Assembly: GCA_947644195.1 (NCBI GenBank) | Contig: CANRZB010000019.1 | Coordinates: forward strand, 1 to 53,889 | DNA: 53,889 nucleotides | Direction: 5' to 3' | Source of the DNA: an uncultured Clostridium sp. | GTDB lineage: Bacteria > Bacillota > Clostridia > Lachnospirales > Lachnospiraceae | Shown: one piece after another, positions 8,199 to 18,583 of the stretch | Numbering within the stretch: the first letter of the stretch is position 1 | How the letters are laid out: every line of letters begins with the position of its first letter | Translations under genes and position numbers: made by a program | Notes under the pieces: generated by a model | Database searches by the model: none | What the model was told of the DNA's origin: nothing | What the model saw: the letters and a program-made list of their open reading frames with translations, nothing else

Positions 8199-10190
8199 TT
8201 AACAAATCTCTGCCCCTGCCGGCATCTTTTTCTCTGGCACAACCAATGCCAGGTTTCCCTCGGCATCCTCCGCACACAGCAGCATCCCCTCTGACAGAAC
8301 GCCAGCCAGCTTAGCAGGTTTTAAATTGACCAGTACCATGACTTTTTTGCCGACCATTTCTTCCGCACTGTAATGCTGTTTAATTCCTGATACAATCTGT
8401 TTTACCTCACTGCCGACACGAACCTGGGAGCACAAGAGCTTCTTGGACTTTTTCACTTCTTCACAAGCAATAATCTCTCCAACCTGGAACTGCATTTTCA
8501 TGAAATCATCGAAGGTAATTTCTTCTTTCGCTTCGATATCAATGACCTCGGTTTCCTCCTCCACTTCGCCAGACTCCGCCTTTGCCTCAGCAATCTGTTT
8601 CTGTTTTATTTCTTCTGCCTTTGCCATTACTTCTTTCGGATCCAGACGCATAAAGAGAATTTCCGGTTTTTCTGTAACCTGGAGATCAGACGGTGTTTTC
8701 CCAAAATCTTCCATATCCTGGAAATCCCGTTTCTGAGTATTTAATTGCGACAGAATTTTTTCCGTCGTATCCGGCATAAATGCTTCCAACAGACTGGCGC
8801 CTATCGTAATCGCCTCTACCAGATTATAAAGCACGGTAGAAAGACGATCTTTTTTCGCCTCATCTTTCCCCAAAATCCAAGGTTCCGTTTCATCAATATA
8901 TTTATTGCAGCGTTTGAACAAGCTGAAAATTTCTGTGATCGCATCTGCGACACGAAGTCTATCCATCTTTTCGGACACCGATTTTGCAACGGCAACCGCC
9001 TTGTCTTTCAATTCCTGGTCTACTGCTTCTGCAACTCCCCGATCGGACACGACACCACCCAGATATTTATTGGTCATGGAAATGGTTCGATTGACCAGAT
9101 TTCCCAGTACATTCGCCAGATCTGAATTCATCCGCTCCACCATCAGCTCCCAACTGATCACGCCATCATTTTCAAAAGGCATCTCATGAAGGACGAAATA
9201 ACGGACAGCATCTACACCAAAGATCGCAACCAGGTCATCCGCATAGATCACATTCCCCTTGGATTTGCTCATTTTGCCGTCTCCCTGCAGGAGCCACGGA
9301 TGCCCAAATACCTGTTTTGGCAACGGCAGATCAAGTGCCATCAGCATGATCGGCCAATAAATTGTGTGGAACCGCAGGATATCTTTTCCAATCAGATGAA
9401 GATCTGCCGGCCAAAATTTGTCATACAAATTCTCTCCATTTTCCGGTGCGTGACTTCCATCCATATCAAAGCCTAATCCCGTAATATAATTGCTTAGTGC
9501 ATCCACCCAAACATACACCACATGCCCCGGATCAAAATCTACCGGAATTCCCCATTGAAAGGAGGTACGGGAAACACAGAGATCCTGCAGTCCAGGCAGT
9601 AGAAAATTATTCATCATCTCATTCTTGCGGGACTCCGGCTGAATAAATTCAGGATGGGTATTGATGTGTTCAATCAAACGGTCCGCATACTTGCTGAGTT
9701 TGAGAAAATACGCCTCCTCCTTGGCCGGCTGGCACTCGCGCCCACAGTCGGGACACTTGCCATCCACCAACTGGGATGTTGTAAAAAAAGATTCGCACGG
9801 GGTACAATACATTCCCTCATAATACCCCTTGTAGATATCTCCCTGCTCATACAGCTTCTTAAATATCTTCTGCACCTGTTTCTCATGATAATCATCCGTG
9901 GTACGAATAAACTTATCATAGGAAGTATTCATCAGATCCCAGATTGTCTGGATCTGCCCGGATACATCATCCACGAACTGCTTCGGTGTCACTCCGGCTT
10001 CCTCCGCCTTCAGTTCAATCTTCTGCCCGTGTTCATCCGTTCCCGTCTGAAAACGGACATCGTATCCCTGCAGCCTCTTAAACCGCACGATACTATCTGC
10101 GAGCACTGCCTCATACGTATTGCCGATATGTGGCTTACCAGACGTATAGGCAATCGCTGTGGTTAAATAATATGTCTTCTTGTCTGCCAT
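8199..10190 (-). CDS. metG: Methionyl-tRNA synthetase
   Basis: A 663-residue class I aminoacyl-tRNA synthetase that charges tRNA-Met. The HIGH-like motif KPHIGNTYE is near residue 19. A CTPC...CPDCGREC zinc knuckle lies around 128-150. KMSKS is at about 306-310. From about residue 560 there is a C-terminal tRNA-binding (EMAP/Trbp111-like) domain beginning MKMQFQVGEIIACEEV. The start is set by AGGAGG 8 nt before the ATG. Expression is controlled by the T-box leader 270 bp upstream, so it should rise when uncharged tRNA-Met accumulates. It appears monocistronic. Confidence 0.97.
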   Translation of the reverse strand: MADKKTYYLTTAIAYTSGKPHIGNTYEAVLADSIVRFKRLQGYDVRFQTGTDEHGQKIELKAEEAGVTPKQFVDDVSGQIQTIWDLMNTSYDKFIRTTDDYHEKQVQKIFKKLYEQGDIYKGYYEGMYCTPCESFFTTSQLVDGKCPDCGRECQPAKEEAYFLKLSKYADRLIEHINTHPEFIQPESRKNEMMNNFLLPGLQDLCVSRTSFQWGIPVDFDPGHVVYVWVDALSNYITGLGFDMDGSHAPENGENLYDKFWPADLHLIGKDILRFHTIYWPIMLMALDLPLPKQVFGHPWLLQGDGKMSKSKGNVIYADDLVAIFGVDAVRYFVLHEMPFENDGVISWELMVERMNSDLANVLGNLVNRTISMTNKYLGGVVSDRGVAEAVDQELKDKAVAVAKSVSEKMDRLRVADAITEIFSLFKRCNKYIDETEPWILGKDEAKKDRLSTVLYNLVEAITIGASLLEAFMPDTTEKILSQLNTQKRDFQDMEDFGKTPSDLQVTEKPEILFMRLDPKEVMAKAEEIKQKQIAEAKAESGEVEEETEVIDIEAKEEITFDDFMKMQFQVGEIIACEEVKKSKKLLCSQVRVGSEVKQIVSGIKQHYSAEEMVGKKVMVLVNLKPAKLAGVLSEGMLLCAEDAEGNLALVVPEKKMPAGAEIC

Positions 10191-10470: not shown

Positions 10471-10760
10471 CCTTTAAGAACTGGTCTGCACCAATTCTTA
10501 AAGACGAGTATTATCCCGTGTTACCACTTTAATTCATCCCCGGCTCACACCGGAAATCTCTGCCACTGCACTAATGATACAGCGAGACGCTTTAACGGGC
10601 GCACCCGTCGCAGCCTGACAGGAAATATTCCTTCCTGTTTCGGTGCGCAGCTCCGAGACCATCTTCCCTCATTTCATGATATGCCCTTTCTCAGCTGACG
10701 GGTTCTCTGTGATACATTCCATGAGATACTCTTCTCTTCCTAGCCTTTTTCTATGATTAT
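10463..10760 (-). promoter_or_regulatory. T-box leader (tRNA-Met sensing) of metG
   Basis: The minus strand carries the T-box sequence AAAGTGGTAACACGGG (10530-10515), followed by a strong intrinsic terminator: 16-nt arms at 10506-10491 and 10484-10469 with six T. The antiterminator bulge that reads the tRNA acceptor end would form with the T-box instead. A Stem I-like region lies at about 10740-10600; a candidate Met specifier is the ATG at 10662-10660 in GAAGATGGTCTC. The specifier position is inferred from the downstream gene and was not folded. Confidence 0.87.
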
Positions 10761-10953: not shown

Positions 10954-12948
10954 ATGAAGTCGAGAAACAACAAAACCAACTGCAAAAAGCTGGTTGCTTT
11001 ATGCCTGCTTTTTGCAATGCTTGTTACAAGCATTGGCGCCTTTGGAACTCTGACAGAAGTACAAGCAGCAAAAAAACAGAAGGCAACACTCAAATTTAAA
11101 AAATCAACAATTACCCTGCAACAGGGGAAAAAGGCTACCGTCAAAATGAAAAAGACCAAGATCAAAAAAGTGAAGATCAAAAAATGGTCCATCAAAAACA
11201 AGAAGATTGCTAAGGTTACAAAAAAGGGAGTGGTAACCGGTCTTCGTGTTGGGAAGACCCAACTGACCTGTAAAGTGAAGTATTTAGCAAAAGGAACGAA
11301 AAAATACAAAAATAAAACATTAAAGTGTAAAATCAAAGTTACCGCACCGGCCTCTGCAAATGGCTCCGACAGTTCCTCGGGAACAAACGGCGGCAATTCA
11401 TCCGCAAATGCCGGAAACACTTCCGCTCCAGATGCATCTACCAATCCTGGCAATACACAAACCCCTGATGCGTCTATGGCTCCAGGCAACACCGAAAACC
11501 CGGACGGCACGACAGCACCAGAGCAGACACAAAAACCGGATCAAACAACAGCTCCGGCAGGAACTGAGAATCCAGATGTAACCGCAACACCGGATCAGAC
11601 GCAGGAACCAGAGAACACCAAGGCGCCGGACCAAACACAAAAACCGGATAGTACAGCAGCACCGGACAGCACAAGCACTCCGAATCCGACCAATGCCCCA
11701 ACGCCGGGATTTGGATTGACACCTTTGGAATTTGCTGCCCAGTTAGGAGCTGGTATCAATATCGGTAACTCTCTGGAGAGCAATTCTACGACGGAATACC
11801 TGGCGGAAAATAATTATCAGGGATCGCCAATGAAGGATCTCTACCTGAGCGGCGAGGCAGGATTGAAGCTGGAGACTTCCTGGGGAAATTCTGAAAAAAT
11901 ATCAAAAGCATTTATTCAGGGAATCAAAGCAGCCGGATTTAAGACGATACGTCTTCCAGTATCCTATGTTAACCATGTGAAAACAGAACTCGTTGATGGC
12001 AAAAAAGTATACACCATTGATGAGCAATGGTTAAACCGTGTACAGGAAGTGGTCGACTGGGCTCTGGAAGAAGATCTGTATATCATTATCAATCTCCATC
12101 ATGACGGAGCTGATAATTGTGATGAAAACGGAAACCTGAATGTATTTGGCGGGGAACAGGCATCCTGGCTCAGCCCTCTGAATCACAGCGGCGATGCCTA
12201 TGCACAGATGGAAGCCAAATTTGTCAGCCTGTGGACACAGATAGCGACCAAGTTCAAAAGTTACTCGGATCATCTGCTCTTTGCTGATATGAATGAGTTT
12301 CACCATAAATATGGTGATCCTGAAACGGAGTGGTGCAATGCACAGAACAAACTTCATCAGGCATTTGTCGATACCATCCGCAGCACAGGAGACAATAACA
12401 TCGGGCGTTATCTGATTATACCGGGATACAATACCAATATTGACCATAGTATCAATTATTTAGTGCTTCCAACCGATTGTCAAGAAAATCTAACCACCGT
12501 CAATGACAATACAGTCGGGCACCTCATCGTAGAGGTACATTATTATGATCCACATACCTATGCGGGCGATAATCCATCAGATACCCTGTGGGGAAGCGAC
12601 GCCGGAGAAGGTGCAGCCAATTGGGGACACGAGGATTTCCTGGAAGGTCAGATGAAGAAAATGAAGACCAATTACATCGCCAAAGGAATCCCTGTTGTCA
12701 TCGGAGAATTTGGTGCACCAGAGCACAAGATCGACAAAGAAACAGATCGTAAATACCGCACCTACTACTATTCGTGTGTGGTAAAATCCGCTGTTCAAAA
12801 TGGTCTCGTGCCAATCGCATGGGATAACGGAACTTCCTATCAGCTGCTGGCACGTGATGGATCCGTAACCGAACAGACCATCGTTGATGCAATCATGAAA
12901 TATTCCAGCAATCCATCCGCAGAGATTGTTAAGCCAACAGCTAACTAA
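10954..12948 (+). CDS. Secreted GH5 endoglucanase-like glycoside hydrolase
   Basis: A 664-residue exported enzyme expected to cleave beta-1,4-glucans or related beta-mannans. Residues 1-38 are a signal peptide (cleavage near VQA). Residues 40-130 are a very Lys-rich Ig-like (Big_2-like) domain. Residues 134-250 are a Pro/Thr/Asp linker built on repeats such as DQTQKPD. The GH5 domain spans about 252-650, with RLPVSYVNH, INLHHDG, acid/base Glu448 in MNEF and nucleophile Glu585 in VIGEFGAP. The Ig-like module sits ahead of the catalytic domain and may bind the cell wall or substrate. AGGAGG is 8 nt before the ATG. It is monocistronic with its own promoter and terminator. Confidence 0.9.
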   Translation: MKSRNNKTNCKKLVALCLLFAMLVTSIGAFGTLTEVQAAKKQKATLKFKKSTITLQQGKKATVKMKKTKIKKVKIKKWSIKNKKIAKVTKKGVVTGLRVGKTQLTCKVKYLAKGTKKYKNKTLKCKIKVTAPASANGSDSSSGTNGGNSSANAGNTSAPDASTNPGNTQTPDASMAPGNTENPDGTTAPEQTQKPDQTTAPAGTENPDVTATPDQTQEPENTKAPDQTQKPDSTAAPDSTSTPNPTNAPTPGFGLTPLEFAAQLGAGINIGNSLESNSTTEYLAENNYQGSPMKDLYLSGEAGLKLETSWGNSEKISKAFIQGIKAAGFKTIRLPVSYVNHVKTELVDGKKVYTIDEQWLNRVQEVVDWALEEDLYIIINLHHDGADNCDENGNLNVFGGEQASWLSPLNHSGDAYAQMEAKFVSLWTQIATKFKSYSDHLLFADMNEFHHKYGDPETEWCNAQNKLHQAFVDTIRSTGDNNIGRYLIIPGYNTNIDHSINYLVLPTDCQENLTTVNDNTVGHLIVEVHYYDPHTYAGDNPSDTLWGSDAGEGAANWGHEDFLEGQMKKMKTNYIAKGIPVVIGEFGAPEHKIDKETDRKYRTYYYSCVVKSAVQNGLVPIAWDNGTSYQLLARDGSVTEQTIVDAIMKYSSNPSAEIVKPTAN

Positions 12949-14076: not shown

Positions 14077-14158
14077 AAAGACTGTTGCAATATACAATAC
14101 TACCAAACTGGCGATATGCCATATTTTGTAGTTTTGATATTTTGCAACAGCCTTTTAT
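14077..14158. terminator. Bidirectional terminator between oxidoreductase and peptide gene
   Basis: Long imperfect hairpin: AAAAG-CTGTTGCAA on the left pairs with TTGCAACAG-CTTTT on the right, with inner pairing through ACTAC / GTAGT. A- and T-runs on both sides allow use in either direction. Confidence 0.75.
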
Positions 14159-14190: not shown

Positions 14191-14247
14191 CTAACCAAAC
14201 AAAAATTTCAGCCACTCATATAAATCGTTGATACCAAAAAACTGCAC
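14191..14247 (-). CDS. Putative 18-aa amphipathic peptide under LytTR control
   Basis: The minus strand encodes MQFFGINDLYEWLKFLFG, initiating at GTG (14247-14245) with a perfect AAAAGGAGGT (14264-14255) eight bases upstream and stopping at TAG (14193-14191). It has its own TTGAAA/TATAAT promoter with two LytTR-like direct repeats just upstream, and a terminator 35-115 nt beyond the stop. The peptide is aromatic-rich, with N7, D8, E11 and K14 on one helical face. It has no Cys, leader or Gly-Gly motif, so it is not an AgrD precursor. It could be a linear signal, a delta-lysin/PSM-like effector, or the coding part of a regulatory RNA of about 200 nt. It lies downstream of the AgrC/AgrA-like genes on the same strand. 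Translation is inferred. Confidence 0.6.
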   Translation of the reverse strand: MQFFGINDLYEWLKFLFG

Positions 14248-14302
14248 TTCCAATACCTCCTTTTATTATTGACAACCAAATCATAACTTGAACTATGAGT
14301 TA

Positions 14303-14369
14303 ATTATAGACCCCTCGGTATTCCATTTTCAATGCAATTGTTCCGAGCGCTGTATTTTTGTTCCGAACG
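14303..14369 (-). promoter_or_regulatory. LytTR-type operator and promoter of the small peptide gene
   Basis: Promoter: TTGAAA (14332-14327), 18-bp spacer, TATAAT (14308-14303). Five bases upstream of the -35 box begin two 12-bp direct repeats, CGCTCGGAACAA (14349-14338) and CGTTCGGAACAA (14369-14358). They are 11/12 identical with a 20-bp period. Paired direct repeats of about 9 bp one helical turn pair apart, abutting -35, are the usual binding arrangement of LytTR regulators such as AgrA. GACGTTCGG fits most positions of the published LytTR pattern. Regulation by the adjacent regulator is inferred. Confidence 0.65.
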
Positions 14370-14386
14370 TCGTCTGATTTATTACA

Positions 14387-14553
14387 CTAGTACAACGAAA
14401 ATTAAGTTTTGGATAGTTTGACGCAGAATGTTTTTCTGAGAGTGCGGCTTCACAAACACAGGTGTAGCGGTGGCTACATCGAGGCTTGGGGAGTCGTGCT
14501 ATCGGAAAAACAGGCAAGTCAAACCGCCAATTACTTAATATTCGTTGTACTAG
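14387..14553. repeat. 167-bp palindromic (MITE-like) element at the kinase stop codon
   Basis: The ends are inverted copies of CTAGTACAACGAA (14387-14399; complement ending at 14553). Similarity continues inward (ATTAAG, TTTGAC, TGTTTTTC) so the whole block can fold into one long imperfect hairpin with apical stem GTGTAGC / GCTACAT. The terminal CTAG may be a duplicated or palindromic target. The right end provides the TAG stop of the adjacent histidine kinase. There is no coding capacity. A transposase would have to act in trans. Confidence 0.7.
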
Positions 14554-15827
14554 CAGACCATCTGAATTTCCACCGCTAACATCTCTTCTTGTATGTTCCA
14601 GCGAATCGTTCCCTGATATTTCTCGACGACTTTTTTCATATTTTTGGTACCATATCCGTGCCTTTTCTTATTCTTCTTCTCCGTTTCAAAAAAAAAATCC
14701 ACTTGATGCCTTAAACTGTTGCTGACTGTGATGAATAAATACCGTTCATAATTCTTAATCTCCAATTTGAGAACCCGATTTTCCTTCTGCTTTAACAGCT
14801 CATCTCTGGCATTTTCCAACGCATTGGCCAACAGGATGCACAGATCCATGTCTTCCATCTGCATCTCTGATGGAAACCTGCCAACCATCGTGAATTCCAG
14901 CGGGCCCATCGCCCTGATCTCCTCCACAGTCACATTAATAAAATAATCCGCAATCTCGTTACCCGTATAGATACTGCTGTTTTCCCGGTAATCCTGGTCC
15001 AATTGGTTAATATAATCCTTCAATCCGGGCAGATTATTATTGTTACTCAACACCCGCAATGCCGCAATATGTTTCTTGAAATCATGGTGGATCTTTCTCA
15101 TGCCCTCGTCTTTTTCGAGGACACTGTCATAATATTTCCTCTGATAGTTCAGACACTCCTGGTCCATTTCATTTTTATATGTCAGCCACTTTCTGGAATA
15201 GATCATATAGACCAGGACAACACAGATCACAATCAAGAATATCATAACCAGAAGACAGGCAAATAATGCCACCCGCCTGATCTTATCGGTCGTCTCATGA
15301 TACAAGCTGATTTGAACGCTGGCAACGATCACTGCCAAACCCGATACAATGAGAAGAATCAGTATGTAATAGCCGGCAGATAATTCTTCAAAATATGCCC
15401 TGACTTTCCCCCTCCTTTTTCCAACTAAGAAAGCCATAGCAGCCCAGAATAAAATTCCAATTCCGTTCATAATACATTCCTTAGAAAAAGCAACAGCAAA
15501 AATATCATTGCCAGTTACATTCAAGAAAATGCTCAGAAAGAACAAATCTGCGGTAGCAATCAGGATATATTGCAAGAAAAAGATCTGTATGATTTTTATG
15601 TATTTTCCTTGCAGAAAAGAGAAAAAAAAAACGAAACACCATAAAGTACGATAAACCAGAGAATCACTGTGCAAATAACATAGAATGGGGATTCCGGCTG
15701 CCAGGTATCCCAGTGCCAGAAATTGATATCGGTCATGTCTTACACGGAAACCTGCTACACCAATGGAGAAAAAAACATATTTTAAGGTTTCCGAAACCAA
15801 CCAGAATATCCATTCAAATTCTCCCAT
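14550..15827 (-). CDS. AgrC-like GHKL-type sensor histidine kinase
   Basis: A 425-residue kinase with six to seven hydrophobic segments in residues 1-215, then the AgrC/NatK-type H box in MRKIHHDFKKHIAALR, an N box LCILLANALENARDEL and a G box HGYGTKNMKKVVEKY. There is no large extracellular domain, as in kinases that sense peptides in the membrane. The ATG at 15827 shares one base with the regulator stop (TGATG) and has GAGG 8 nt upstream; a TTG two codons earlier is less likely. The stop codon lies within the terminal CTAG of the palindromic element. No agrB or classical agrD is present in the window, so the signal must be another peptide or come from elsewhere. Confidence 0.85.
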   Translation of the reverse strand: MGEFEWIFWLVSETLKYVFFSIGVAGFRVRHDRYQFLALGYLAAGIPILCYLHSDSLVYRTLWCFVFFFSFLQGKYIKIIQIFFLQYILIATADLFFLSIFLNVTGNDIFAVAFSKECIMNGIGILFWAAMAFLVGKRRGKVRAYFEELSAGYYILILLIVSGLAVIVASVQISLYHETTDKIRRVALFACLLVMIFLIVICVVLVYMIYSRKWLTYKNEMDQECLNYQRKYYDSVLEKDEGMRKIHHDFKKHIAALRVLSNNNNLPGLKDYINQLDQDYRENSSIYTGNEIADYFINVTVEEIRAMGPLEFTMVGRFPSEMQMEDMDLCILLANALENARDELLKQKENRVLKLEIKNYERYLFITVSNSLRHQVDFFFETEKKNKKRHGYGTKNMKKVVEKYQGTIRWNIQEEMLAVEIQMVC

Positions 15828-16513
15828 CAGCAATACCTCGCATTCTTCTCACAATATTTTCTGTATTTCTCTCGCACCTCTGCCAGTTTTCTTATCGAAA
15901 TCGGAACTTCATTTCCACGAATCTCTACCGTTTTACCATTGAAACGATCAACCCATTTCGCATTAATCAGATACGTCCTATGGCATCGGATAAATCCCAC
16001 CTGCAACAACTGCTGTTCCAAATCTGCCATAGAGGTCCGAACTAAACGGGTGCTTCCATCGGCCAATATCAGGTTGCTGTACACACGTTCCGAACGGATA
16101 AACAAAATATTTCTGCTGTCAACAGCATCATCCACCAAGACATATTGGTTCATCATGCGAATTGCTGCCTGTAGCACCGTGCCAAATTGCTTTTCCAGCT
16201 GATCCTTCAAAACTAACCCAAATACCTGCAGCCCAAAGGCGGAAAAAACCAGCTCCTCATGGTTGGTTACAAAAATAATCATCGTCTTGCCGCCCAAATT
16301 TTGCAGATACTCTTTTACCTCAAGTCCGTTCCGCTTCGGCATCTCGATATCCAGAACCAGCAAATCAACCGTACCTTCATAAGACAGAAACTGTTCTCCG
16401 TCCTCAAATTCAAGTATTTCAAACAAACTATCTGTTTGCCGCAAAACCTGTTCGCAGATACGCATGATCCGGTTTCTGATGGCGGCTTCATCATCACATA
16501 TTCCTATTATCAA
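15827..16513 (-). CDS. LytTR-family response regulator (AgrA-like)
   Basis: A 228-residue DNA-binding regulator. The receiver domain spans about 1-115, with acidic pocket ICDDE and phospho-Asp in LLVLDIEMPKRNG (residue 55). The LytTR domain spans about 130-225, with RSERVYSNLILADG, VGFIRCHRTYLINAKWV and the NEVPISIRKLAEVREKY tail. I place the start at TTG 16513 because AAAGAGG ends 9 nt upstream. A GTG at 16522 would add three residues but sits against the ribosome site. It is translationally coupled to the sensor kinase. Candidate target: the direct repeats at 14338-14369 upstream of the small peptide gene. Confidence 0.87.
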   Translation of the reverse strand: MIIGICDDEAAIRNRIMRICEQVLRQTDSLFEILEFEDGEQFLSYEGTVDLLVLDIEMPKRNGLEVKEYLQNLGGKTMIIFVTNHEELVFSAFGLQVFGLVLKDQLEKQFGTVLQAAIRMMNQYVLVDDAVDSRNILFIRSERVYSNLILADGSTRLVRTSMADLEQQLLQVGFIRCHRTYLINAKWVDRFNGKTVEIRGNEVPISIRKLAEVREKYRKYCEKNARYC

Positions 16514-16639
16514 ATCGTGCACCCTCTTTATTATACAATCGTTTCTTCTGTTGTAATACTCTGATTCGTGTTACCCCGACATTATATCATTTAATCTGAT
16601 GCAGTGCACCTATAAAATGAAACATTTCTAAACGAATAT

Positions 16640-18583
16640 TTAAAAAACTGGAACTTCATGCGTGGGAGGGAAGCACATATGATCCCGACAGACATAATAC
16701 GTCGTTCTACCGTCCAGCAAGGTATACTCTGCCGTTTCCTCCGTTAAAATGGTAAGATCGGAATACAGTGACAACCGGCATCTGACATCCTCTGCATGCT
16801 CCTGTAAAGACAGTACGGCAACCACCTTGGTCGGCGGATTCTGGTAATAGAGCAACGCTGTCAAAAACACCGTATGTCCCATCGGATAGTCTCCAGTTTC
16901 GGCTGACAAAAAGGCCAGCTGTCTCTCCGCAGCAAGCCGATACTCTTCCTGTTCTGTCAACTGTGACAGACGCACCAGGCAATACGCCATAACAGAATTT
17001 CCGCTTGGCAGTGCACCATCCTGAGTTTCTTTTGGTCTGGTTACCAGGTTGTCATTCTGTGTCCCATACAAATAAAATCCCCCCGATTGTGGGTCCATAA
17101 ATTGTTCCATCGCCGCTTTCGTCATCCGACAGGCTTTCTCCAAATCCTGCCCGTTCCCCGTCACTTCATACAAAGCAAGGCATGATGCAGCATAATATGC
17201 ATAGTCATCCAAAAATCCCCTCACGGAACGAATCCCGTTGCGGCAGCTTACATACAGAACATCCCCTTCCATGAGATTCTTCTCGATATAATCTCTGGCA
17301 GAGAGCGCTACATCCCTATATCGGGCATTTCCAGTAACCCGATACAAAACCGACAATGCCAAAACAGTCAGGGAATTCCAGGCAGTCAGAACCTTGTCAT
17401 CTAAGTGAAGCTTCGCACGGGATTTGCGATATTCATAGAGCTGCTGCCTTTCCTTGGAAAATTGATCTGAAATTTCCTGCCCCTGCAATAAATTAGGAAT
17501 ATTTTTTCCTTCAAAGTTCCCCTGGCTGGTAATATCATAATACTGACAAAAAGCTTGTCCTGTTCTTTCTCCTAATACATCACAGATCTCCTGCTGCGTC
17601 CACACATAATATTTTCCCTCCTGCCCCTCACTGTCTGCATCCTGTGCAGAATAAAACTCGCCTTCCGCCCCTCTCATCTCACGGAACAGATACTCCGCCG
17701 TCTGGCAGGCTGTATCAAGAAAGTCTTTTCGGCCAGAGGCCCGATAAGCTGCTGCATACGACAGAATCAGCAATGCATTATCATACAACATCTTTTCAAA
17801 ATGTGGCACCAGATAAAATGCGTCCGTGGAATACCGCGAAAAACCGTATCCAATTTGGTCAAAAATTCCGCCCCGTCGCATCTTATCCAATGTAAAATAA
17901 ACCTGTTCCGCTGCTGTTTGATTTTTATGAATCCTGGCATACAGGAGTAGAAAAATCAGATTATGAGGCGTGGGAAATTTAGGCGCCTGGCCAAAGCCAC
18001 CATGTTCTGGATCAAAAGTTTGAGAAAATATGGCGGCCGCCTGTTCCACCAACCTAGTATCAATCTCTTTGTCAAGTGCATCCTCCCCCGCATGAACGGC
18101 TTCCACAATCTGTTCCGCGGTCTCCAGCAACCCGGAACGACTATTCTGCCACTTATCGGCAATTGTCAACAACAAATCCCGAAAACCAATCATCCCATAC
18201 CGGGTTTCTGGCGGAAAATATGTCCCGGCAAAAAAGGGTTTCTGCTCTGCCGTCATAAATATACTCATTGGCCAACCGCCCCGCCCTGTAAAAGCCTGAC
18301 AAAACGTCATATACACACCGTCAATATCTGGTCTTTCCTCCCGATCCACTTTAATAGAAATAAAATATCGGTTTAGAATGGCAGCCACCGCTTCATTCTC
18401 AAAACTTTCCTCCGCCATCACATGGCACCAGTGGCAAGTACTATAGCCAATGCTTACAAAAACCGGCTTGTTTTCACGGTCTGCCCGTGCAAAAGCCTCC
18501 TGGCCCCATGGATACCAATCTACGGGATTCTCCGAATGTTGCAGCAGATATGGACTGCTCTGACCTTTGAGATGATTTGTCAT
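16640..18583 (-). CDS. YyaL/SSP411-like thioredoxin-domain protein
   Basis: A 647-residue cytoplasmic protein of the DUF255 family. The N-terminal thioredoxin-like domain (1-165) holds the signature [16 protein letters not shown] and an active-site-like CHWC motif in [11 protein letters not shown]. The rest is an (alpha/alpha)6 barrel like that of N-acylglucosamine 2-epimerases ([18 protein letters not shown], for example). Family members occur from bacteria to mammals, but their biochemical role is not settled. AAAGGGA precedes the ATG. It is transcribed alone, downstream of an SDR gene on the same strand with a 68-bp gap, so a joint transcript is possible. Confidence 0.88.

What the first reader, a model, noticed from the sequence alone, without database searches (positions are those of the whole stretch)
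14191..14369. LytTR-boxed transcript encoding an 18-aa amphipathic peptide beside an AgrC/AgrA-like pair
Seen: two 12-bp direct repeats with a 20-bp period abut a TTGAAA-18-TATAAT promoter, then a perfect AAAAGGAGGT and an 18-codon frame, then a strong terminator. Known: AgrA-type LytTR regulators bind paired direct repeats next to -35 and drive RNAIII, which encodes the small peptide delta-lysin, and PSM genes. Inferred: the neighbouring LytTR regulator drives this gene, giving either a linear peptide quorum circuit without AgrB/AgrD or an RNAIII-like effector. The transcript would be about 200 nt.
Basis: partly seen in the sequence, partly recalled or inferred. Interest (0 to 1): 0.85.

Follow-up and report, generated by a model that had tools for sequence, protein, structure and literature searches.

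The report
Tiny peptide gene beside Agr-like kinase
A bacterium of the family Lachnospiraceae carries a gene for an 18-residue peptide under a promoter that its neighbouring sensor-regulator pair probably controls, and about 30 related loci keep this layout with fast-changing versions of the peptide, which suggests a so far undescribed kind of bacterial peptide signal.

Summary
On the minus strand, two 12-bp repeats (10/12 identical, period 20) end 6 bp before TTGAAA-18-TATAAT. A strong Shine-Dalgarno, an 18-codon frame (GTG start, MQFFGINDLYEWLKFLFG) and a hairpin follow, beside a GHKL kinase (only NCBIfam match AgrC, far below cut-off) and a LytTR regulator. The long box pair occurs once in the 3.4-Mb draft genome. 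The nearest regulator relative (48%) has the same boxes, promoter and a homologous peptide at the same place. After the kinase, 19 of 32 related pairs carry a short aromatic peptide fitting my rule, written after seeing members (shuffle mean 1.06, maximum 4; control regions 12 of 649). Codon comparisons favour translation (pN 0.24, pS 0.66). A motif-only search of 397 family genomes added two loci beside such kinases. None of 25 loci has AgrB in held DNA; one more distant pair has AgrD and AgrB in that slot, another an AgrD-type frame. My reading: an Agr-like circuit whose AgrB/AgrD module is replaced by a leaderless aromatic peptide, most likely the kinase's ligand. Ligand role, export and output are inferred; a PSM-like effector is the main rival.

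The parts
14359..14370 (-). LytTR box 1, ACGTTCGGAACA
   Evidence: sequence; only exact TCGGAACA-N12-TCGGAACA pair in the genome
14339..14350 (-). LytTR box 2, GCGCTCGGAACA, period 20 from box 1
   Evidence: sequence
14327..14332 (-). -35 hexamer TTGAAA
14303..14308 (-). -10 hexamer TATAAT, 18-bp spacer
14256..14265 (-). Shine-Dalgarno AAAAGGAGGT
   Evidence: sequence
14191..14247 (-). peptide gene, GTG start, MQFFGINDLYEWLKFLFG plus stop
   Evidence: homologue MSMYDINGFYDWLKHLFG at the same place in G016; pN/pS
14078..14155 (-). long hairpin, probable terminator shared with the converging gene
   Evidence: one partial copy (77%, 54 query positions) elsewhere in the genome; not listed by the terminator scan on this strand
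14550..15833 (-). AgrC-like GHKL histidine kinase (ATG at 15827 is an alternative start)
   Evidence: Pfam HATPase_c_5; NCBIfam AgrC 39.9 bits against a cut-off of 500; AF2 model, first three PDB matches are the AgrC cytoplasmic part
15827..16522 (-). LytTR response regulator
   Evidence: Pfam Response_reg and LytTR
14386..14555 (-). 170-bp repeat element (MITE-like) between kinase and boxes; the kinase stop codon lies at its edge
   Evidence: five copies over nearly the full length, this one included, 98-100% identical, and self-complementary ends

Best explanation
The locus is a small Agr-like circuit without AgrB/AgrD. The LytTR regulator, phosphorylated by the AgrC-like kinase, binds the two boxes and switches on a roughly 215-nt transcript whose only product is a leaderless, aromatic, amphipathic 18-residue peptide. 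The peptide most likely acts as the ligand of that kinase, so that expression feeds back on itself. Shown by sequence: boxes, promoter hexamers, frame, conservation, the link to this class of regulator-kinase pair, no AgrB found. Inferred: binding of the boxes, transcription, translation, export, ligand role, and the output of the circuit.
For: Same boxes, promoter and peptide homologue beside the nearest regulator relative. 19 of 32 pairs with regulator scores of 140 bits or more carry a peptide fitting the rule after the kinase; shuffle mean 1.06, maximum 4; controls 12 of 649. In 25 curated loci, 20 have an 11-mer pair (9/11 or better) at lag 19 or 20; any other lag from 12 to 40 at most 2. 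Box plus promoter after the kinase in 20 of 32 such pairs, 20 shuffles mean 1.8, maximum 5. pN 0.24 against pS 0.66 pooled over 11 hand-picked, overlapping comparisons. Motif-only search: 5 of the 7 hits at E below 0.05 lie beside a kinase of this class, two of them not in the query. In one more distant pair (L098) the slot after the kinase holds an AgrD (NCBIfam 24.0 bits, cut-off 19) behind a box pair and promoter, with AgrB next; in a second (L231) it holds a frame scoring 24.4 bits as AgrD, without a box pair and without AgrB in the held DNA. None of 25 peptide loci has AgrB in the held DNA.
Against: The test for joint change of peptide and kinase sensor part was inconclusive (partial correlation 0.08, permutation p 0.14). 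No exporter is seen beside the gene in the window, though G016 has ABC-type genes directly downstream. The only strong box pair in the genome is the peptide's own, so a separate output is unknown. In five related pairs the box stands before a longer frame instead (L076, L089, L092, L070, L106, by eye), and box pairs also follow kinases of more distant pairs without such a peptide. AgrC is an NCBIfam match for only 4 of 9 kinases of peptide loci scanned. The AgrD slot was noticed in two pairs; AgrD was not searched for systematically. No expression data.
Confidence: 0.6

Rival explanations
1. The peptide is an effector, not a signal: a leaderless amphipathic peptide like staphylococcal PSMs or a leaderless bacteriocin, whose gene the pair switches on in answer to some other cue.
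For: PSM genes are reported as directly regulated by AgrA, and RNAIII encodes delta-haemolysin (PMC10482373, passages). Peptides are aromatic and many are amphipathic. ABC-type genes follow in G016 and L067 (family matches) and, by eye, in L065, L087, L038.
Against: At WIN, L068, L033, L032, L071, L088, L105, L111 I saw no exporter or immunity gene directly after the peptide, by eye on frames of 75 residues or more; for L066 only 975 nt are held. One more distant pair carries AgrD with AgrB, another an AgrD-type frame, in the same slot. Members of 10-11 residues (L102, L099) are short for a membrane-active effector.
Confidence: 0.2
2. The peptide never leaves the cell: it inserts into the membrane and tunes its own kinase directly, as a private feedback micropeptide.
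For: Length and hydrophobicity suit membrane binding; no exporter seen beside it in the window; the kinase has a membrane part of about five to seven helices.
Against: ABC-type genes close behind the peptide in some relatives; the sister slot holds an AgrD-type signal, which is exported (export recalled).
Confidence: 0.13
3. The transcript acts as an RNA (RNAIII- or SpoZ-like) and the frame is incidental.
For: C. difficile RgaSR, with an AgrC-like kinase, drives a small RNA through direct repeats (PMC10602386, passages). The window transcript folds better than shuffles.
Against: The most stable part of the fold is the terminator hairpin. Codons appear to be under selection. No Rfam family at this place at gathering score. 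RNA conservation was not tested by alignment.
Confidence: 0.05
4. Chance: an unused frame behind an unrelated promoter.
For: Short frames with a Shine-Dalgarno are common (12 of 649 control regions fit the rule), and promoter-like hexamers are too (shuffle mean 2.2).
Confidence: 0.02

Closest known systems
Agr quorum sensing (AgrBDCA; AgrB PF04647, AgrD TIGR04223)
   Same: AgrC-like kinase, LytTR regulator, direct repeats before the -35, peptide gene beside the pair and probably driven by it
   Different: no AgrB at the locus; the peptide is 18 residues, without Cys, without AgrD match, leaderless; the peptide gene follows the kinase. The same genome has AgrB at C2 and C11, with an AgrD-like frame (by pattern) at C11
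Staphylococcal PSMs and delta-haemolysin
   Same: short amphipathic peptides under a LytTR regulator (PMC10482373, passages); leaderless nature recalled
   Different: reported as cytolytic effectors; here tightly linked to a regulator-kinase pair and rapidly varying, many with a [FLI]-W-[ED]-[WL]-[LF]-x-x-[LF]-[FL]-G end; homology not tested
C. difficile RgaSR and SpoZ
   Same: AgrC-like kinase and VirR-like regulator acting on a small transcript through direct repeats (PMC10602386, passages)
   Different: kinase and regulator are orphans, the regulator has several targets, and SpoZ is reported as a regulatory RNA
ComCDE / Blp peptide systems
   Same: membrane kinase, regulator, linear peptide (PMC6563777, passages; LytTR class of the regulator recalled)
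   Different: no leader and no processing exporter seen here
SIP-RopB of Streptococcus pyogenes
   Same: leaderless peptide signal of eight residues (PMC6565748, passages)
   Different: the SIP receptor is the intracellular regulator RopB, not a membrane kinase
LytTR regulatory systems (HdrRM, BrsRM)
   Same: direct repeats mostly 12 bp, in a minority 11 or 13 bp apart, close before the -35, with feedback (PMC6193735, passages)
   Different: a membrane inhibitor replaces the kinase; no peptide in the passages seen

Membership tests
Agr system | AgrC-type GHKL kinase with several membrane helices | tested here: met
   similarity only, NCBIfam AgrC cut-off not reached (39.9 of 500 bits); AgrC among the matches of 4 of 9 kinases of peptide loci
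Agr system | LytTR response regulator | tested here: met
   (both domains above gathering score). AgrA itself not shown: NCBIfam AgrA 26.4 bits against 400, behind BtsR 46.0 and LytR 43.7
Agr system | AgrB protease beside the pair | tested here: not met
   AgrB in G000 only on C2 and C11, the window is C19; none in the held DNA of 25 peptide loci
Agr system | AgrD precursor with thiolactone/lactone core | tested here: not met
   no Cys in the peptide; no NCBIfam match for the padded peptide at E up to 1
Agr system | regulator binds paired repeats at the peptide promoter | not testable with these tools
   repeats are there; binding needs a gel shift
PSM / delta-haemolysin | leaderless short amphipathic peptide | tested here: met
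   18 residues from the start codon; hydrophobic moment 0.44 over the last 14 residues
PSM / delta-haemolysin | sequence homology to PSM families | not tested
   peptide is below the 20-residue limit of the family search; no padded copy was run against Pfam
LytTR regulatory system (LRS) | membrane inhibitor instead of a kinase | tested here: not met
   neighbour is a GHKL kinase
ComCDE/Blp-type pheromone | double-glycine leader and peptidase-ABC exporter (recalled) | tested here: not met
   no leader in 18 residues; no exporter seen beside it in the window, by eye

The most novel reading that the evidence does not exclude
A widespread, so far undescribed class of peptide signalling in Lachnospiraceae: AgrCA-type pairs in which AgrB and AgrD are replaced by a ribosomally made, unprocessed 10-28-residue aromatic peptide, encoded directly after the kinase under a paired LytTR box, with box sequence and peptide varying from locus to locus.
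Probability: 0.58. Interest if true: 0.88.

Novelty: new variant of a known kind. Interest (0 to 1): 0.8.

Why it matters
Genomes of this family hold up to 32 places that match this regulator, and what the kinases beside them sense is, to my knowledge, mostly unknown. Peptides of 10-28 residues are easily missed by gene callers. If these are the ligands, many such pairs gain a testable, synthesizable signal. A route from Agr-type cyclic signals to unprocessed linear ones would also become visible, since AgrD sits in the same slot in at least one more distant pair.

Tried and rejected
Joint change of peptide and kinase sensor part: partial rank correlation 0.081 given catalytic part and regulator, permutation p 0.14, 24 loci; the same for the regulator 0.089, p 0.15. 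Inconclusive. First repeat test with free position: 14 of 25 loci at p below 0.05, as it often chose repeats outside the promoter; replaced by the lag count and the anchored test. In the lag count five of 25 curated loci have no pair at lag 19 or 20 (L066, L071, L111, L116, L173). In the anchored test a box is found in 17 of the 24 curated loci that it covers (L066, L071, L093, L116, L111, L090 and L173 miss; L038 not covered). The codon count had one comparison (L088/L116) out of register by one residue; mended, pooled pN 0.27 became 0.24. First enrichment count with 350 nt gave 17 of 32, shuffle mean 0.91, maximum 3, controls 10 of 653, as window and L063 lay just beyond the cut; repeated with 400 nt. 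The rule (15-28 residues, Shine-Dalgarno of 4, hydrophobic C-terminus with G) was written after seeing members, so the enrichment is partly circular; the motif-only search is less so. There 5 of 22 listed hits lie beside such a kinase: 5 of 7 below E 0.05 (G393 and G376 miss) and 0 of 15 from 0.05 to 0.3 (about 1.5 kb held on either side). In G442 the kinase frame has an internal stop codon. Of the 60 loci (L073-L116) went into the survey; L117-L132, the weaker matches, mostly Bacteroidota but with two Clostridia (L119, L122), were left out. Four pairs were set aside as too short (L084, L237, L196, L192).

Of the 13 of 32 pairs without a fitting frame, four show a box and an aromatic peptide outside the rule by eye (L097, L102, L099, L105), five a box before a longer frame (L076, L089, L092, L070, L106), L064 a half box and no clear frame, L100 a box and no frame in the short held stretch, L075 and L035 neither. 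Lactococcin-972-like is my label by eye for short secreted proteins in L065, L067, L069, L070; Pfam gave no match for L067 and L069, L065 and L070 were not scanned. Viral contigs: two partial regulator relatives. Phages: no match to a padded, changed peptide (a weak test at this length). Plasmids: 19 records with kinase matches, 23-28% identity in the ten rows shown. Print search: ten searches of the open PMC library listed no paper that I recognised, from title and start of abstract, as describing such peptides; most subscription papers and all bioRxiv preprints are not held. Papers seen as passages only: PMC10602386, PMC6193735, PMC6565748, PMC8895600, PMC12345188, PMC9426450, PMC6563777, PMC10482373.

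Full report
What is there. The finding reads on the minus strand. Two 12-bp repeats, ACGTTCGGAACA (14370-14359) and GCGCTCGGAACA (14350-14339), have a period of 20 and end 6 bp before TTGAAA-18-TATAAT. A strong Shine-Dalgarno follows, then an 18-codon frame from GTG (14247-14191; MQFFGINDLYEWLKFLFG) and a long hairpin. In the 3.44-Mb draft genome (82 contigs) the pair TCGGAACA-N12-TCGGAACA occurs without mismatch only here; with up to three mismatches there are 41 places against 12 for the reversed control, most of them not looked at. The longer pair with up to three mismatches occurs once, control 0. Box, -35 and -10 together occur without mismatch only here; the next sites have 2 and 3 mismatches. 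The promoter hexamers alone are not above chance (1 found, shuffle mean 2.2). Since no second box pair stands before the regulator and kinase genes, feedback, if any, probably runs through the peptide.

The neighbours. The regulator has receiver and LytTR domains; the kinase has the GHKL ATPase domain. The only NCBIfam match of the kinase is staphylococcal AgrC, 39.9 bits against a cut-off of 500; the regulator matches BtsR (46.0) and LytR (43.7) better than AgrA (26.4), all below cut-off. Of nine kinases of peptide loci scanned, four match AgrC (window, L068, L077, L090) and five do not. An AlphaFold model from 27 kinases of these loci (mean pLDDT 82, pTM 0.56) shows about six to seven membrane helices before the kinase part, and its first three PDB matches are the AgrC cytoplasmic part. 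AgrC-like is fair for the window kinase; AgrC is not shown.

The nearest relative. Among 61 genomes, own included, the regulator's best match outside this genome is G016 (48%). A search of the same 61 with the 18-residue peptide alone returned three places: itself, G016:C70 at E 0.04 (per genome), and a weak match inside a long frame in G015. The G016 place lies about 310 nt after the G016 kinase and has the same boxes (ACGTTCGGAACA twice, period 20), TTGAAA-17-TATACT and MSMYDINGFYDWLKHLFG. Two permease-like proteins, one a weak FtsX match below cut-off and one without a match, and an ABC ATPase follow directly; the ATPase scores 207.9 bits against TIGR03608, a putative bacteriocin exporter, with a cut-off of 254.85, behind LolD at 214.2.

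A family of loci. They gave 157 regulator frames (147 unique): 95 in the order regulator-kinase, 11 kinase-regulator, 51 without a kinase next to them. I curated 25 loci with a short aromatic peptide after the kinase, three more by eye (L097, L102, L099) and two from the motif search (L264, L268): 30 in all, of which L173 has no clear box and some others a weak one. Examples: MVMPYGINDFWELFQIFFGR, MLVDANVFSEWFKFIFGL, MQFYGISSVWDILKRLFG, MFYESGETLWELLKRLFGW, MPYDIGSIWEVLKRFFGG, MFDIWKWLFG. In many a C-terminal motif of about ten residues, [FLI]-W-[ED]-[WL]-[LF]-x-x-[LF]-[FL]-G, recurs; the N-terminal part varies. The box sequence differs between groups (GTTCGGAACA, TATAGCAAA, ACCGTTxxxTCC, GCGACA types) while the two halves of one locus are alike (by eye).

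Counts and controls. With 400 nt after the kinase, 19 of 32 pairs with regulator scores of 140 bits or more hold a peptide fitting the rule; 200 shuffles gave a mean of 1.06 and a maximum of 4. At 100-140 bits it is 3 of 33 (mean 0.74, maximum 4), below 100 bits 0 of 18 (mean 0.34); downstream of other genes 12 of 649. The rule was made after seeing members. In the 25 curated loci an 11-mer pair with at least 9 of 11 identical occurs at lag 20 in 16 and at lag 19 in 7, 20 loci in all, and at any other lag from 12 to 40 in at most 2. An anchored test (repeat pair, then promoter) finds 20 of 32 pairs, shuffle mean 1.8, maximum 5; it also finds 15 of 33 (mean 1.3, maximum 3) and 5 of 18 (mean 0.8, maximum 2) in the lower score classes, so such boxes are wider spread than the peptides. 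Pooled over 11 hand-picked comparisons, not independent, pN is 0.24 and pS 0.66; for window against G016 0.27 and 0.79.

Prediction test. A 14-column profile of the peptide ends, without any kinase information, was run on 397 genomes of the family. Of 22 hits at E up to 0.3, seven are below 0.05. Five of these lie beside a kinase of this class: the window, G182 and G028, which were in the profile (as window, L074, L071), and G375 and G442, which were not. In G442 the kinase is upstream, its frame cut by one stop codon, and box halves ACCGTTTGTTCC and ACCGTTTATTCC precede the gene; in G375 the kinase is downstream. G393, G376 and the 15 weaker hits are not beside one.

The AgrD slot. The same genome has AgrB at C2 and C11 and none on C19; of the 28 genomes of the genus 22 have AgrB, on none of the contigs that carry my peptide loci. 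None of the 25 curated loci has AgrB in the DNA held, 4 to 54 kb each. In L098, a Ruminococcus flavefaciens MAG, a more distant regulator-kinase pair is followed by a box pair (lag 21) with promoter, then a 45-residue frame scoring 24.0 bits as AgrD (cut-off 19), then AgrB. L231 has a frame scoring 24.4 bits as AgrD in the same slot, with no box pair and no AgrB in the stretch held. These two were noticed, not counted; AgrD was not searched for systematically. The slot of the tiny peptide is thus the slot of a known autoinducer precursor in at least one more distant pair, which is my main reason to prefer a signal over an effector.

Results against. The test for joint change of peptide and sensor part was inconclusive. 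Five related pairs have a longer frame behind the box. In G004 a box pair of a related kind precedes a secreted leucine-rich-repeat protein with no regulator or kinase in the 3 kb held, so such regulators may have other outputs. No exporter is seen beside the gene in the window. AgrC similarity is not uniform among the kinases.

Mechanism, with its status. Boxes bound by the regulator: likely from position and literature (PMC6193735, passages: repeats 11-13 bp apart; 4-11 bp before the -35 in S. mutans), not shown. Transcript of about 215 nt: inferred from promoter and hairpin. Translation: supported by Shine-Dalgarno and codon selection. Export: unknown. Ligand of the kinase: inferred from linkage, feedback layout and the AgrD slot. 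Overall 0.6 for the ligand reading, 0.2 for an effector, 0.13 for a membrane micropeptide acting from inside.

Known or new. By membership it is not an Agr system (AgrB and AgrD tested, not met), though it probably works like one. It resembles PSM genes in size and control. Ten searches of the open library listed no paper that I recognised as describing such peptides. I rate it a new variant of a known kind.

Noticed in passing
14386-14555: A 170-bp element with self-complementary ends, five nearly full copies at 98-100% in the genome, this one included. It sits between kinase and boxes, the kinase stop codon at its edge. A similar element lies at the same place in G026:C1 (L038, by eye).
   Followed up: partly
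L067, L065, L069, L070: Regulators of this class beside short secreted proteins that look like lactococcin 972 to me (no Pfam match for L067 and L069; the other two not scanned), with ABC-type genes nearby.
   Followed up: partly
L242:1501-3028 (G004:C129): A box pair of the related GGGAACA kind before a secreted BspA-type leucine-rich-repeat protein (Pfam), with no regulator-kinase pair in the 3 kb held.
   Followed up: partly
L064 (G007:C40): Box pair and a further half box, strong Shine-Dalgarno sites, but by eye only 6- and 11-codon frames behind them: possibly a decayed peptide locus.
   Followed up: no
G000:C11 (L072): An Agr-type cluster in the same genome: AgrB and a frame that looks like AgrD by pattern (not scanned against NCBIfam).
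   Followed up: partly
10497-10750: T-box leader on the minus strand (Rfam) upstream of a frame that looks like methionyl-tRNA synthetase (8199-10190, by eye).
   Followed up: no
10954-12948: Family-5 cellulase (Pfam), probably secreted, with a long Pro/Thr-rich linker (by eye).
   Followed up: no
16640-18583: DUF255 thioredoxin-like protein directly upstream of the regulator on the same strand.
   Followed up: no
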